From: Deltaproteobacteria bacterium
Lineage (GTDB): Bacteria; Desulfobacterota; DSM-4660; Desulfatiglandales; HGW-15
Length of the DNA: 10,547 bases
Assembly (NCBI GenBank): GCA_019308985.1
Contig: JAFDHB010000123.1
Location: 1 to 10,547, forward strand
Direction of reading: 5' to 3'
This document shows positions 2,318 through 6,752 of the stretch, in pieces. Within the stretch, counting starts at the first letter, position 1. Each line of letters begins with the position of its first letter. The translations under genes were made by a program, and so were the position numbers. The notes below the pieces were generated by a model. It worked only from the letters and a program-made list of their open reading frames with translations, was not told the DNA's origin and did not search any database.

Positions 2318-4234
2318 TTAAGCCTTTTCATTCCCCTTTTGATACTGCCGGTCCAATACCTCCCTTACCTTGCGGGCCAGTTTCGTGGGGGAAAAGGGCT
2401 TTTCTATGAAGTCAATGTCTTTGGGTATGATGCCATGGCTCGTTATGACATTGTGGGTATACCCGGACATATACAGGACCCTCAAATCAGTTCTGCTGGA
2501 TTGGAGCCTTTCTGCAAGGTCCTTCCCCTTCATGCCGGGCATCACCACGTCTGTCAACAGGAGGTCAATCTTTCCCACAAACTCCTGGCTTACCCTTATG
2601 GCGTCATCGCCGTTTTTTGATTCAATGACGTTGTATCCGTACTTCAGGAGCGCCTTCTTAGCGAAATTTCTTACATTGTCATCGTCTTCCGCCAACAGCA
2701 CCAACTCTGAACCGCTTAGGTCTTCACCTCGTCCATAGATTCCTCTCTCGGTATCCTTGGTCTTTTTCGCTTTTGGAAGATATACCTTCATGGTCGTCCC
2801 ACATCCCGGTTCGCTGTAAGGCCAAATGTGCCCCCTATTTTGACTGACAATCCCATGAACAGTAGAAAGCCCAAGCCCCGTACCGATTCCCCGTTCTTTC
2901 GTTGTGAAAAAGGGTTCGAAAATGCGAGTGCGTAGTTCTTCATCCATGCCCACACCAGTGTCGCTGATTGCCAGCAAAACGTATTGGCCGGCTTTTCCCT
3001 CAAGTCCCCGTTTTCTGAAGTAACTAATATCCAGCTCCGCATTACTCGTCTCAACGGTGAGTTTTCCTCCCTCCGGCATTGCGTCCTTGGCATTGACCAC
3101 AAGGTTCATAATAACCTGGTTGATCTGGACTGGATCGATGTAGATGTCGTTCAAATTGGGGTCTAGCATAAGTTGAAGATCTATGTCTTCCCTGATCAGT
3201 CGCCTGAGCATCTTTTCCATATCCAAGATGGTTTCATTGACATTCAGGACTTCAGGTTGCCTGACCTCCTTGCGGCTAAAGGCAAGGAGCTGATGGGTAA
3301 GGGCTGCTGCCTTATCGCCCGCCTTTATTATCTCCCGCACATCCTCAAAAAGGGGACTATCCCTTTCTATCTCGGTGAGGGCGAGCTGTGCGTTTCCCAT
3401 AATGGTCGTCAGCAGGTTGTTGAAGTCATGTGCGACACCCCCAGCCAGAGATCCTATGGCCTCCATCTTCTGGGACTGGAGCAGTTGGGCCTGTAAGCTT
3501 TCCTTCTCCTTAACTTCATTCTTGCGTCGGGCTATTTCTCTCTTCAGTTGCCTGTTAAGGGCCTCGAGCTTTTCCCGTGCCGCGTCAGAGTCCTTCATTG
3601 CTTCTCTGATCCTCTTATTGGAAGCCTCCAGTTCATTTTTCTTTGCCGTGAGGTCAGCTGTCCTCTCCATGACCCGCTGCTCCAGCCTTTCTTTCTCCCT
3701 GGCGGAATCTTTTTCTCTTCTCTTTATTTCTGTCAAGTCGGTCACTATGGCGCAAACGGTTGGGGGGGACTCTTCCGGCAGGAATGTGAGGGTCAATCGG
3801 ACGGGGATCTCGATCCCCTGGACATTTCGCACCAGAACTTCAATGCTTTTAACTTCTCGAGGCCTCAATTTCATGGCTTGTTCTAAGGCCTCATGATCTT
3901 GCGATGAAATCAGTGATTTGATATTGCTTCCCATTATCCGCTCTATTGGTTTTGCTGTCATGTGCGCAAACCGCCTGTTGCAATAAAGTATCGTCCCATC
4001 TCCGGACAGAGTAAGGGCCCCCTCTCCCATCTGCTCCACCAGTATCCTGTATGAGTATTCTGCACCTCTCAGGGTGTATATCCTTTGCCCTTCCTCATGG
4101 GAGACTACGATTGCGTCCACTTCCCCATTCCTTATTGCCTCCAGGGTCTCCTCTGTCTCTTCCAGGCGGCTCCGGAGCTTTCTTATCTCCCCTTCCTTTT
4201 GCCTTAATATTTGCGCCAGAGATCTTTCCTGCAT
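2318..4234 (-). CDS. Soluble PAS hybrid histidine kinase with receiver domain (Kai operon)
   Basis: Likely sensor and output kinase of the Kai operon. The frame extends upstream to an ATT at 4249, but the ATG at 4234 (MQERSLAQIL) has an ideal GGGGAGG 6 nt before it, so 638 residues are annotated. Domains: N-terminal coiled coil (1-35); PAS (about 58-170, with LSGDGTILYCNRRFAHMT); long charged coiled coil (170-255); HisKA with GGVAHDFNNLL, phospho-His H269; HATPase with N box NLVVNAKDAM (N381), G1 DTGVGM (D425), FEPFFTTK and G2 GTGLGLS (451-457); and a C-terminal receiver with acidic pocket EDDD (516-518), phospho-acceptor D562 (LLLTDVVMPGMKG), S590 and K612. No membrane segment or signal peptide is seen, so it should be cytoplasmic. 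It lies 45 bp after kaiB2. All catalytic residues are present. There is no DNA-binding output domain, so phosphate presumably passes to an unlinked partner. Confidence 0.93.
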   Translation of the reverse strand: MQERSLAQILRQKEGEIRKLRSRLEETEETLEAIRNGEVDAIVVSHEEGQRIYTLRGAEYSYRILVEQMGEGALTLSGDGTILYCNRRFAHMTAKPIERIMGSNIKSLISSQDHEALEQAMKLRPREVKSIEVLVRNVQGIEIPVRLTLTFLPEESPPTVCAIVTDLTEIKRREKDSAREKERLEQRVMERTADLTAKKNELEASNKRIREAMKDSDAAREKLEALNRQLKREIARRKNEVKEKESLQAQLLQSQKMEAIGSLAGGVAHDFNNLLTTIMGNAQLALTEIERDSPLFEDVREIIKAGDKAAALTHQLLAFSRKEVRQPEVLNVNETILDMEKMLRRLIREDIDLQLMLDPNLNDIYIDPVQINQVIMNLVVNAKDAMPEGGKLTVETSNAELDISYFRKRGLEGKAGQYVLLAISDTGVGMDEELRTRIFEPFFTTKERGIGTGLGLSTVHGIVSQNRGHIWPYSEPGCGTTMKVYLPKAKKTKDTERGIYGRGEDLSGSELVLLAEDDDNVRNFAKKALLKYGYNVIESKNGDDAIRVSQEFVGKIDLLLTDVVMPGMKGKDLAERLQSSRTDLRVLYMSGYTHNVITSHGIIPKDIDFIEKPFSPTKLARKVREVLDRQYQKGNEKA

Positions 4235-4279
4235 GGACTTCCTCCCCAATAACCACTCGGAACGTTTTGCGCAACCGTT

Positions 4280-4971: not shown

Positions 4972-5018
4972 CGCTGACTCCTTGATAATACTATTGTTTG
5001 CCCCAGCAGTGCCCCTGC

Positions 5019-6752
5019 TCATTTCCTGAGCTTGGCGCGGGTCGGAGTATCATGGTTTGCCTGTCGTCTTGAAGCCATCCGTTCCCGATCCTCCTCCACC
5101 CGTGCTTCCATCGTCTCGATCTCCCGAAGCCTTCTTGTTATTCCGTCCTCCTCAGACTCAAACTGGGCGCGCAAAGCACTGACCTGGGCCTCCATAACCT
5201 TTCTCTTACGCTCGAGATCCAGTTTGAGACGATCCATTTCCTGCCTTCGTGCCAGTAGCTCCGCTCTCTCCCTGGCCTCCTGAGCAATTCTGGCAGAACC
5301 GGTCAGCACTTCTCCTCCACCCACATAGACGTCCAAAAGGTCTATGCCCCTGTCCGTTATTACGAATTCCCTTACCTGGTTAGAATGGGCCATGCCCCGG
5401 GATTTCAGGACATACATAAGATAATTACGTTCCCCGCTGACCTCCACGTCACGTAACATCAACCAGGTATCGGCAAGGGATGAAATGCCTGATTCTGTAA
5501 ACTCCAGGGGCTGCCCCCCAATGGTCAAGCTCGTTAGTATAGTGGTTATCTGGTTCATCTTGAGGTAATCCACCAGGCGGACCAGCATCTGCTTTATATC
5601 CCGCCCGCCGGCCAGAATGGCGAAAGAGGTAATGGGATCGAGGATTACTGCATTGGGCCTAAAATCACGGATGGCCCTGTTCATCACGGCCAGGTGCAGC
5701 TCCAAGCCATGGAGGGTCGAACGGGCATTATGGAACCTGAGCAATCCCCTTTTTACCCATTTGTCGAGGTTGATACCAACAGACCGCATGTTGCGGAGGA
5801 TCTGGTCCATGGATTCCTCGAATGCAAAGTAGAGGACCCGTTCTTTTCCGCGGCATGAGGCATCAGCAAAGCTGGCGGCAATTGTGGTCTTACCCGTTCC
5901 GGCCGTACCAGTGATCAGAACCGTGCTTCCTCGATAATACCCCTGCCCTCCCAGGATACCGTCCAGCCTCTTTATGCCGCTTGATACCATCTCTGTGCTG
6001 GCCGGGTGCTCCAGCCCCAGGGAGGTAATGGGCATAACCAACATTCCCCTCTTATCGATCAGAAAGGGATAGGCGTTGGTGCTGTGCATCGATCCCCGGT
6101 ACTTGATCACCTGCAACCTTCGCGTAGAGATATCTCGCTCCAACCTATGATCGAGCACAATCACACAGTCCGAGACATATTCTTCCAGGCCTTGGCGTGT
6201 CAAAGTCTGGTCGCCCTTTTCGCCCGTTATTATGGCAGTGACCCCCTTGTCTTTCAGCCACCGAAACAGACGTCGCAACTCAGATCTTACAACAGCTTCG
6301 TTTGACAATGCACTGAAGAGCGACTCGATCGTATCCATGACCACTCGCCTGGCACCAATGGAATCAATGGCAAGGCCCAGCCTGACAAACAGGCCCTCCA
6401 GATTGTATTCGCCTGTCTCTTCTATGTCGGATCGCTCTATGTGAACGTGATCGATCACCATTTTCTTCCGGGCCACCATCCCCTTCAAGTCGAAACCCAA
6501 GGATGCCGAGTTTTTCACCAGTTCCTCAGGTGTCTCTTCGAAGGCGACAAACACACCCGGCTCTTTGAACTGTTCAGCGCCATGTACCAGAAATTCCATG
6601 GAAAGTAATGTCTTGCCAGAGCCTGGTCCGCCGCACACCAGGGTGGGGCGCCCCCTGGGCAGCCCGCCATTCGTAATCTCGTCCAGTCCCTGGATTCCGG
6701 TCAGGCACTTTTCCAGCACATCAAGGGGTGGTTTGGCTCTCTTTCCGCTCAT
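5019..6752 (-). CDS. kaiC: KaiC-family double-domain ATPase with coiled-coil tail
   Basis: 577-residue RecA-like protein with two KaiC domains. CI has Walker A GGPGSGKT (41-48), catalytic glutamates E72/E73 (FEETPEE) and the hydrophobic strand RRVVMDTIES. CII has Walker A GTAGTGKT (282-289), E312/E313 (FEESMDQ) and NAVILDPITS. The CII phosphorylation segment aligns as TESGISSLADT: T419, S424 and S425 correspond to T426, S431 and T432 of Synechococcus KaiC, so both phospho-acceptor positions are hydroxylated and T432 is replaced by Ser. Hexamer formation, autokinase and ATPase activity are expected from the family. After about residue 485 the cyanobacterial A-loop/KaiA-binding tail is replaced by a roughly 90-residue Arg/Glu-rich coiled coil (QEARERAELLARRQEMDRL and onward). 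The ATG at 6752 has AAGGAG 6 nt upstream. It is first in the operon, and its stop overlaps a possible kaiB start. Confidence 0.95.
   Translation of the reverse strand: MSGKRAKPPLDVLEKCLTGIQGLDEITNGGLPRGRPTLVCGGPGSGKTLLSMEFLVHGAEQFKEPGVFVAFEETPEELVKNSASLGFDLKGMVARKKMVIDHVHIERSDIEETGEYNLEGLFVRLGLAIDSIGARRVVMDTIESLFSALSNEAVVRSELRRLFRWLKDKGVTAIITGEKGDQTLTRQGLEEYVSDCVIVLDHRLERDISTRRLQVIKYRGSMHSTNAYPFLIDKRGMLVMPITSLGLEHPASTEMVSSGIKRLDGILGGQGYYRGSTVLITGTAGTGKTTIAASFADASCRGKERVLYFAFEESMDQILRNMRSVGINLDKWVKRGLLRFHNARSTLHGLELHLAVMNRAIRDFRPNAVILDPITSFAILAGGRDIKQMLVRLVDYLKMNQITTILTSLTIGGQPLEFTESGISSLADTWLMLRDVEVSGERNYLMYVLKSRGMAHSNQVREFVITDRGIDLLDVYVGGGEVLTGSARIAQEARERAELLARRQEMDRLKLDLERKRKVMEAQVSALRAQFESEEDGITRRLREIETMEARVEEDRERMASRRQANHDTPTRAKLRK

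What the first reader, a model, noticed from the sequence alone, without database searches (positions are those of the whole stretch)
2318..6752. KaiA-less kaiC-kaiB-kaiB'-hybrid kinase operon in a non-cyanobacterium
Four genes are packed with overlaps or gaps of at most about 45 bp: a full double-domain KaiC, a canonical-looking KaiB, a divergent KaiB and a soluble PAS hybrid kinase with a receiver. All catalytic residues of KaiC and the kinase are intact, so this looks like a working signalling unit. Cyanobacterial clocks need KaiA; here none is visible and the KaiA-binding tail is gone. The module could be an hourglass-type timer or an energy/stress sensor whose output is the kinase. Function is inference; KaiC/KaiB/kinase grouping in non-cyanobacteria is known, but the two-KaiB version with this kinase is worth characterising.
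Basis: partly seen in the sequence, partly recalled or inferred. Interest (0 to 1): 0.75.

Follow-up and report, generated by a model that had tools for sequence, protein, structure and literature searches.

The report
KaiC operon with two KaiB types
A bacterial relative of the cyanobacterial clock, without a recognisable KaiA protein, sits in a four-gene operon whose two KaiB proteins belong to two old and different families; the operon type is widespread and already known, but the second KaiB is a good candidate for the missing link between this timer-like device and its output kinase.

Summary
In detail: kaiC (6752-5019), kaiB (5022-4612), kaiB' (4612-4280) and a PAS-HisKA-HATPase-REC kinase (4249-2318, probably from ATG 4234) are packed on the minus strand, motifs intact. 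KaiA (PF07688) was found in 0 of 61 genomes, the nearest one included. KaiC is of the KaiC2 kind (Ser-Ser, C-terminal coiled coil), nearest in PDB to Rhodobacter sphaeroides KaiC, the published KaiA-less hourglass. The arrangement is not rare: 62 of 80 named KaiC relatives, in 12 named phyla including archaea, show kaiC-kaiB-kaiB'-kinase, and Methylorubrum extorquens kaiC1-kaiB2-kaiB1-kaiR1 is published. What I add: the KaiBs are two old families (126 of 126 sorted by position). With matched alignments AlphaFold2 gives KaiB the ground-state fold (low confidence) and KaiB' the fold-switched, thioredoxin-like fold; 13 of 13 cyanobacterial SasA domains score higher with the KaiB' profile. The kinase starts with a ~70-residue element without Pfam model; all 22 strong hits in 345 genomes lie directly behind a kaiB. 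I read KaiB' plus kinase as a possible split SasA. That is inference: a co-variation test did not support a specific KaiB'-kinase pairing, and trees do not settle SasA's origin.

The parts
5019..6752 (-). kaiC, 577 aa, KaiC2 type: CI and CII ATPase domains, Ser424-Ser425, C-terminal helical tail (limits by eye, about 485-570)
4612..5022 (-). kaiB, 136 aa from ATG 5022; possibly 119 aa from ATG 4971 with AAGGAG ahead; sorts with the 'first' KaiB family
4280..4612 (-). kaiB', 110 aa, sorts with the 'second' KaiB family, on a long branch
2318..4249 (-). PAS hybrid histidine kinase, 643 aa from TTG or 638 aa from ATG 4234 (likelier): NT element, PAS, HisKA, HATPase_c, REC
3983..4192 (-). NT element of the kinase with the start of its PAS domain (residues 20-89 as used in the searches); no meaningful Pfam match
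6753..7212 (-). upstream intergenic region, presumed promoter region (inference); no consensus site above chance, no Rfam match in the window

Best explanation
A KaiA-independent KaiBC module of the KaiC2 kind. Shown by sequence: gene content, order, intact motifs, Ser-Ser sites, coiled-coil tail. Inferred from R. sphaeroides: KaiC phosphorylates itself without KaiA, two rings join by the tail, KaiB binds CI and speeds ATPase, and the ATP/ADP ratio drives the switch, giving an hourglass or energy sensor rather than a free-running clock. My inference for the new part: KaiB is the metamorphic member (ground state, switching to bind KaiC), while KaiB' is set in the thioredoxin-like fold, binds the KaiC CI ring like the KaiB-like domain of SasA, and carries or activates the co-encoded NT-PAS kinase. 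KaiB' plus kinase would then be a SasA in two pieces, and the REC domain of the hybrid kinase the start of the output phosphorelay. Rough odds: module identity 0.95; KaiA-independent autokinase 0.85; KaiB' mainly fold-switched 0.6; KaiB' as SasA-like coupler 0.4.
For: KaiC: best PDB matches are R. sphaeroides KaiC 8dba/8fwi/8db3 (621, 617, 594 bits; other KaiC chains 374 or less), the alignment running into the tail; S424 and S425 invariant in the 14 KaiCs aligned; KaiA model 0 of 61 genomes. Hourglass of that KaiC: PMC10076222 (passages). Conservation: 62 of 80 named loci have kaiC, kaiB (1-3), kaiB', NT kinase; 56 bacterial, 5 archaeal, 1 unranked. Two families: in the 63 loci with exactly two kaiB, 126 of 126 sort by position, one change on the tree. 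Fold: KaiB' model pLDDT 78.5, E-H-E-H-E-E-H, the 11 best hits KaiB chains in fold-switched form, then SasA, no ground-state KaiB in the 50 listed; KaiB model with 33 rows from the same loci E-H-E-H-H-H-E, pLDDT 61.7, the 17 best hits ground-state crystals. Which entries are which form is partly from their titles, partly recalled. SasA likeness: NF006800 at E<=0.01 in 32 of 33 KaiB' (best 3.2e-9) against 24 of 33 KaiB (best 1.4e-5); SasA 6x61 25.8 bits with the KaiB' profile against 16.5; 13 of 13 SasA domains prefer the KaiB' profile. Fusions: a KaiB' query against proteins of 447-1420 aa found 5; all score KaiB' over KaiB, 4 carry PAS, 3 of these HisKA; P0123 looks intact as KaiB'-PAS-PAS-HisKA-HATPase. 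KaiB' distances co-vary with KaiC beyond the other parts (partial r 0.42, p 0.002; KaiB 0.18, p 0.022; uncorrected).
Against: No interaction, phosphorylation or rhythm was measured. NT does not co-vary specifically with KaiB' (partial r 0.083, p 0.15), nor PAS (-0.018, p 0.64); NT co-varies slightly with KaiC (0.13, p 0.032). Of 71 NT loci 9 have one KaiB: by score 6 KaiB', 2 KaiB, 1 undecided; on the tree only 3 sit firmly with the second copies, 4 (L055, L063, L068, L097) lie between and 2 with the first. Trees do not settle SasA: it sits with KaiB' at 99/88, but trees holding it with KaiB are not rejected and were even slightly likelier (p-AU 0.55; 0.81 on the quick tree). The three cyanobacterial KaiBs lie between the two families, not clearly in the first. 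The thioredoxin control is mixed: of 7 found by both profiles 5 score 0.3-1.1 bits higher with KaiB', 2 score 2.1 and 5.5 bits higher with KaiB. The fusion search used a KaiB' query, which favours KaiB' hits; 3 of the 4 PAS fusions have frameshifted-looking C-termini (by eye), and the G310 'fusion' is an artefact of a run of N. The KaiB model is weak, one model per family was run on proteins of different length, AlphaFold2 on KaiB depends on the alignment, and KaiB' lacks the published switch residues: Arg at position 70 and Asp at 85 in 0 of 63, Ala at 86 in 7 of 63. The window's KaiB' and KaiC are on long branches.
Confidence: 0.45

Rival explanations
1. The kinase docks on KaiC directly through its NT element; KaiB' is a modulator of KaiC, not a coupler.
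For: NT co-varies with KaiC after control (0.13, p 0.032) but not with KaiB' (0.083, p 0.15); NT kinases also occur with a first-family KaiB alone in 2 of 71 loci.
Against: In 345 genomes all 22 NT hits of 41 bits or more lie directly behind a kaiB; the fusions found carry KaiB' (with a KaiB' query), and the apparently intact one has no NT hit above 12.1 bits.
Confidence: 0.25
2. KaiB' is a second, redundant KaiB that binds KaiC like the first, perhaps setting dose or cooperativity.
For: Same family, conserved Pro-Thr-Leu and Pro-x-Pro core, strong co-variation with KaiC.
Against: Strongly differing sites and perfect sorting by position across 12 named phyla argue for separate roles; different predicted folds.
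Confidence: 0.15
3. KaiB' acts apart from KaiC, as a thioredoxin-like stress protein or kinase ligand, as was discussed for the fold-switched Legionella KaiB.
For: Legionella KaiB (4kun) prefers the KaiB' profile, 90.2 against 76.5 bits; it was crystallised fold-switched and tied to stress (PMC10808063 passages).
Against: KaiB' has the strongest co-variation with KaiC among the parts tested and stands in the kaiC operon in 68 of 71 NT loci by score.
Confidence: 0.15
4. On the physiology axis: no timekeeping at all, but a stress or energy sensor (as KaiC1 in M. extorquens UV resistance).
For: PMC8069551 (passages): deletion of kaiC1 in AM1 lowers UV survival.
Against: The nearest studied KaiC forms an ATP/ADP-driven hourglass. 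The two readings are not exclusive.
Confidence: 0.5

Closest known systems
Methylorubrum extorquens AM1 kaiC1-kaiB2-kaiB1-kaiR1 (PMC8069551, passages)
   Same: Order kaiC, two kaiB, regulator; KaiC1 phosphorylated on two adjacent serines
   Different: Host; the passages read give neither KaiR1 domains nor KaiB types, and I did not compare sequences
Rhodobacter sphaeroides KaiBC hourglass (PMC10076222, passages; PDB 8dba, 8fwj)
   Same: KaiC with Ser-Ser sites and C-terminal coiled coil, no KaiA; its KaiB sorts with the first KaiB here
   Different: Studied with one KaiB; I saw no second KaiB in the passages read
Thiodictyon syntrophicum kaiCBB with a diguanylate cyclase (PMC5944118, passages)
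   Same: kaiC with two kaiB next to a signalling gene
   Different: The neighbouring gene is a diguanylate cyclase, not a hybrid kinase
Cyanobacterial SasA
   Same: KaiB-like thioredoxin-fold domain working with a histidine kinase; nearer to KaiB' than to KaiB by profile
   Different: In SasA one chain; here KaiB' and kinase are separate genes
Ramlibacter kaiC-Nt_HK pair (PMC3164672, passages)
   Same: kaiC next to a kinase with a conserved N-terminal module, cotranscribed there
   Different: No kaiB there; its Nt module was compared with KaiB/SasA, whereas the NT element here gives no KaiB match in Pfam

Membership tests
KaiC2-type KaiC | Two KaiC ATPase domains with intact Walker A and catalytic Glu pairs | tested here: met
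KaiC2-type KaiC | Ser-Ser instead of Ser-Thr at the phosphorylation sites | tested here: met
   S424 S425; definition from PMC10076222
KaiC2-type KaiC | C-terminal extension of about 50 residues aligning with the R. sphaeroides coiled coil | tested here: met
   phmmer alignment to 8dba covers residues 15-551
KaiC2-type KaiC | Dodecamer and KaiA-independent autophosphorylation | not testable with these tools
   needs protein
KaiC equivalogs of NCBIfam | score above curated cut-off | tested here: inconclusive
   NF006799 715 of 408 bits met; TIGR02655 352.6 of 546.25 not met
Canonical KaiABC clock | kaiA present | tested here: not met
   PF07688 0 of 61 genomes; KaiA3-type not searched for
KaiB family | Pfam KaiB above curated cut-off | tested here: met
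   92.1 and 85.6 of 27 bits
Circadian KaiB equivalogs (TIGR02654, NF006798) | score above curated cut-off | tested here: not met
   KaiB 104 of 145.3 and 107.3 of 110 bits; KaiB' 81.3 and 83.8
SasA | KaiB-like domain fused to histidine kinase | tested here: not met
   kinase has PAS, no KaiB domain; KaiB' reaches 22.9 of 342 bits with NF006800
SasA-like function of KaiB' plus kinase | thioredoxin-like fold binding KaiC CI and controlling the kinase | tested here: inconclusive
   fold predicted; binding and control untested; co-variation with NT not significant
CckA kinase (NF046020, NF046026) | score above curated cut-off | tested here: not met
   408.6 and 333.2 of 1000 bits
kaiC-kaiB-kaiB-regulator operon (M. 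extorquens type) | gene order kaiC, kaiB, kaiB, signalling gene | tested here: met
   against PMC8069551

The most novel reading that the evidence does not exclude
The widespread kaiC-kaiB-kaiB'-kinase operon is a complete clock-like device with its own output: KaiB is the fold-switching timer part, KaiB' a permanently fold-switched, SasA-like adaptor, and the NT-PAS protein an exchangeable output (kinase, GGDEF/EAL, sigma-54 activator, HD) plugged onto KaiB'. It would supply the KaiC output route that a published survey says must be different outside cyanobacteria, and SasA could be a later one-chain version.
Probability: 0.35. Interest if true: 0.75.

Novelty: new member of a known kind. Interest (0 to 1): 0.45.

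Why it matters
A published survey (PMC5520375, passages) concludes that stimulation of SasA homologues by KaiC outside cyanobacteria is very unlikely because the KaiB-like domain is missing, so the output must differ. Here a free-standing KaiB family with SasA-like traits stands between kaiB and the kinase in 62 of the 80 loci examined. That makes the output question testable with four small genes and purified proteins, and gives a matched pair of KaiB paralogues for studying how fold switching is tuned.

Tried and rejected
KaiB'-kinase fusion in genome G310: first looked like a natural fusion (one 813-aa open frame); reading the sequence showed a run of N at the junction, so it was dropped. 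Exclusive pairing of NT with KaiB': dropped, since 2 of 71 NT loci have a first-family KaiB only, 4 more single KaiBs are intermediate on the tree, and the partial Mantel test is not significant. SasA derived from KaiB': tree support 99/88 but the opposite constraint is not rejected; left open. All solved KaiBs belonging to the first family: true for R. sphaeroides, but the three cyanobacterial ones lie between the families. Loss of the aspartate near the C-terminus (position 88, Asp to Ser in the window) as a hallmark of KaiB': dropped, Asp is kept in 77% of second-position KaiBs. Published switch substitutions as the cause of the KaiB' fold: not matched. Promoter and terminator scans gave nothing above chance, the repeat scan only loose two-copy matches, Rfam nothing. 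Wide transfer of the operon: the KaiC tree of 60 loci plus the window needs 20 changes of phylum label for 12 groups (minimum 11), compatible with transfer but no proof. Papers: only passages of PMC10076222, PMC5520375, PMC10931921, PMC5944118, PMC8069551, PMC5847659, PMC3164672, PMC6627678, PMC10808063, PMC6989803 and PMC11372060 were seen; others only as search listings; no paper was read whole.
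Full report
What is there. On the minus strand, kaiC (6752-5019, 577 aa), kaiB (5022-4612, 136 aa), kaiB' (4612-4280, 110 aa) and a kinase gene (4249-2318, 643 aa from TTG; 638 aa from ATG 4234, which has GGGGAGG ahead) follow one another with 4-bp and 1-bp overlaps and a 30-45 bp gap. Pfam names all four; NCBIfam adds KaiC NF006799 at 715 of 408 bits, while both KaiBs stay below the circadian KaiB cut-offs. KaiC has both Walker A motifs, both FEE pairs and Ser424-Ser425; the kinase has its His, N and G boxes and an intact receiver.

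The KaiC. By sequence the nearest solved proteins are R. sphaeroides KaiC (8dba, 8fwi, 8db3), the first with E 1.9e-185 (621 bits) and an alignment that continues into the C-terminal helices to residue 551; all other KaiC chains score 374 bits or less. Passages of PMC10076222 describe the group: about 50 extra residues, two serines, no KaiA, dodecamer, fast autophosphorylation, and an hourglass reset by ATP/ADP. KaiA (PF07688) was found in 0 of 61 genomes, including G001, which shares 100% of the window's sampled words. KaiA3-type proteins (PMC11372060, passages) might escape that model.

How common. Of these 80, 62 show kaiC, kaiB (one to three), kaiB', NT kinase; 6 kaiC-kaiB'-NT; 2 kaiC-kaiB-NT; 1 has an undecided KaiB and NT; 3 kaiC-kaiB-kaiB' without an NT hit (two loci end 778 and 1006 bases behind kaiC, L110 has a kinase without NT); 2 kaiC-kaiB (one locus ends 219 bases behind kaiC); 4 have none, also within 5 kb of the middle of kaiC. 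The 62 fall into 12 named phyla (4 without rank), 56 bacteria, 5 archaea, 1 unranked. In G001 and 60 relatives 14 of 61 carry KaiB and 8 of those 14 have adjacent pairs (pairs read from coordinates). In 345 genomes of the phylum 45 have a KaiB match, 35 above cut-off, and 17 of these have adjacent pairs (same way). In print: kaiC1-kaiB2-kaiB1-kaiR1 of M. extorquens AM1 with phospho-serines and a UV phenotype (PMC8069551), kaiCBB of Thiodictyon (PMC5944118), kaiC-kaiB followed by kinase or GGDEF/EAL genes (PMC3164672); all passages.

Two KaiB families. In the 63 loci with exactly two kaiB, first and second copies separate completely on the tree, 126 of 126, one change. Several neighbouring branches make that split: one with 69 rows on the second side (support 82), one with 73 (support 96), the difference being the single KaiBs L055, L063, L068 and L097. 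The window's two KaiBs fall one on each side. R. sphaeroides KaiB goes with the first copies; the three cyanobacterial KaiBs lie between the families, set off from both in the careful tree of 33 pairs, the window's among them (99/88 and 99/93). The strongest differences are Ile/Leu at alignment position 39, Leu/Tyr at 45, Trp/Tyr at 5, Gln against mixed at 14, Asp against mixed at 54, Arg/Lys at 64.

Predicted folds. With 33 rows each from the same loci, AlphaFold2 gives the window's KaiB' the thioredoxin-like order E-H-E-H-E-E-H (pLDDT 78.5); its 11 best PDB matches are KaiB chains from 8fwj, 5jwr, 5jyt, 4kun, 5jwo, 5n8y, 5jwq and 8ubh, then SasA (1t4y, 6x61), and no ground-state KaiB is in the 50 listed. 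The window's KaiB gets E-H-E-H-H-H-E (pLDDT 61.7); its 17 best matches are 2qke, 1wwj, 1vgl, 1r5p and 4kso chains, ground-state crystals (form partly recalled), and fold-switched forms follow at target TM 0.52 or less. PMC10808063 (passages) reports R. sphaeroides, T. elongatus and S. elongatus KaiB as ground-state and Legionella and TV-4 KaiB as fold-switched. Here R. sphaeroides KaiB sorts with the first family, and by profile score the cyanobacterial ones lean to it and Legionella to the second (90.2 against 76.5 bits); TV-4 is neutral (76.5 against 75.6). One model per family was run, on proteins of different length, and the KaiB one is weak. The three published switch positions (70, 85, 86 here, placed by matching the R. 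sphaeroides letters) do not explain it: Arg at 70 and Asp at 85 in 0 of 63 second copies, Ala at 86 in 7 of 63.

Likeness to SasA. The SasA model NF006800 matches 32 of 33 KaiB' and 24 of 33 KaiB at E 0.01 or better. The KaiB' profile finds SasA in PDB at 25.8 (6x61) and 24.0 bits (1t4y), the KaiB profile finds 6x61 at 16.5 and does not list 1t4y; 9 of 9 other R. sphaeroides and cyanobacterial KaiB sequences (TV-4 aside) prefer the KaiB profile; of 7 thioredoxins found by both, 5 lean to KaiB' by 0.3-1.1 bits and 2 to KaiB by 2.1 and 5.5. Of 39 genomes of the phylum of L101's cyanobacterium 13 gave a SasA above cut-off, and all 13 KaiB-like domains score higher with KaiB' (one is seen by it alone). 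Phylogeny does not decide: SasA sits with KaiB' at 99/88, but the tree holding it with KaiB has a log-likelihood 2.6 higher and is not rejected (p-AU 0.55; likewise).

The kinase and its NT element. Residues about 20-75 of the kinase (consensus LR-RL-EAEETLRAIR-GEVDALVV---G-QVFTL-GA--YR-L-E-M-EGA) give no meaningful Pfam match. In 345 genomes all 22 hits of 41 bits or more lie at most 589 bases behind a kaiB on the same strand; the next hit is at 32.5 bits, and below that PAS starts prevail (at most 17 candidates a genome were scored, so some may be missed). Exceptions seen elsewhere: in G005 the NT gene is divergent from kaiB'-kaiC, and L044 and L059 have a second NT gene behind the first. 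What follows NT-PAS differs: of 28 such genes (the window and 27 that I picked of 71) HisKA and HATPase_c in 15, receiver in 8, GGDEF and EAL in 4 each, sigma-54 domain in 2, HD in 1 (some frames may be cut). A search of 447-1420-aa proteins with a KaiB' domain found 5 among 21 candidates: four with PAS, three of these with HisKA, and one KaiC-KaiB'; all prefer the KaiB' model, as the query favours; only P0123 looks undamaged, and it has no NT hit above 12.1 bits.

Co-variation. Over 60 operons, partial correlations of distance, uncorrected, are KaiB'-KaiC 0.42 (p 0.002), KaiB-KaiB' 0.46 (p 0.002), KaiB-KaiC 0.18 (p 0.022), NT-KaiC 0.13 (p 0.032), NT-KaiB' 0.083 (p 0.15), NT-KaiB 0.080 (p 0.17), PAS-KaiB' -0.018 (p 0.64). 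This favours KaiB' acting with KaiC and does not favour a specific KaiB'-NT contact.

Reading. The window is an ordinary member of a widespread KaiC2 operon without recognisable KaiA. The part worth work is KaiB': an old paralogue, predicted in the fold that binds KaiC, closer in profile to the SasA domain than its neighbour is, placed before the kinase. A split SasA is the reading I rank first for the mechanism, at about 0.4. I found no paper proposing it in the searches, which cover open-licence PMC text only.

Noticed in passing
window 1-867, minus strand: IS1380-type transposase running off the window's end (NF033539 below its cut-off).
   Followed up: no
window 7213-10150, minus strand: Lipoate-protein ligase, a CCG/4Fe-4S protein and a GcvH in a row.
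   Followed up: no
window 1030-1938, minus strand: folD next downstream of the kinase on the same strand, probably unrelated.
   Followed up: no
L049 and L042: Operons with four and three kaiB genes; only the last one is of the KaiB' kind.
   Followed up: partly
L101 genome (Amazonocrinis), loci L186-L191: A cyanobacterium holding a canonical-looking KaiB, SasA and also the kaiC-kaiB-kaiB'-NT operon, so both output types in one genome.
   Followed up: partly
L016, L017, L019, L030, L033, L140, L166-L169, L171: Single-kaiB operons of a more distant KaiC: 11 of 11 with a weak NT hit (12-37 bits locally) have KaiB scoring KaiB' over KaiB, L030 by 0.4 bit only; single KaiBs without NT (such as L146-L150) also lean that way.
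   Followed up: partly
L078, L094, L103, L107: KaiC of this kind with no kaiB within 5 kb of its middle, all four Ignavibacteria or Ignavibacteriae by title.
   Followed up: no
L172 (G310): A run of N between kaiB' and the kinase gives a false fusion; automatic annotation could call it a KaiB-kinase.
   Followed up: yes
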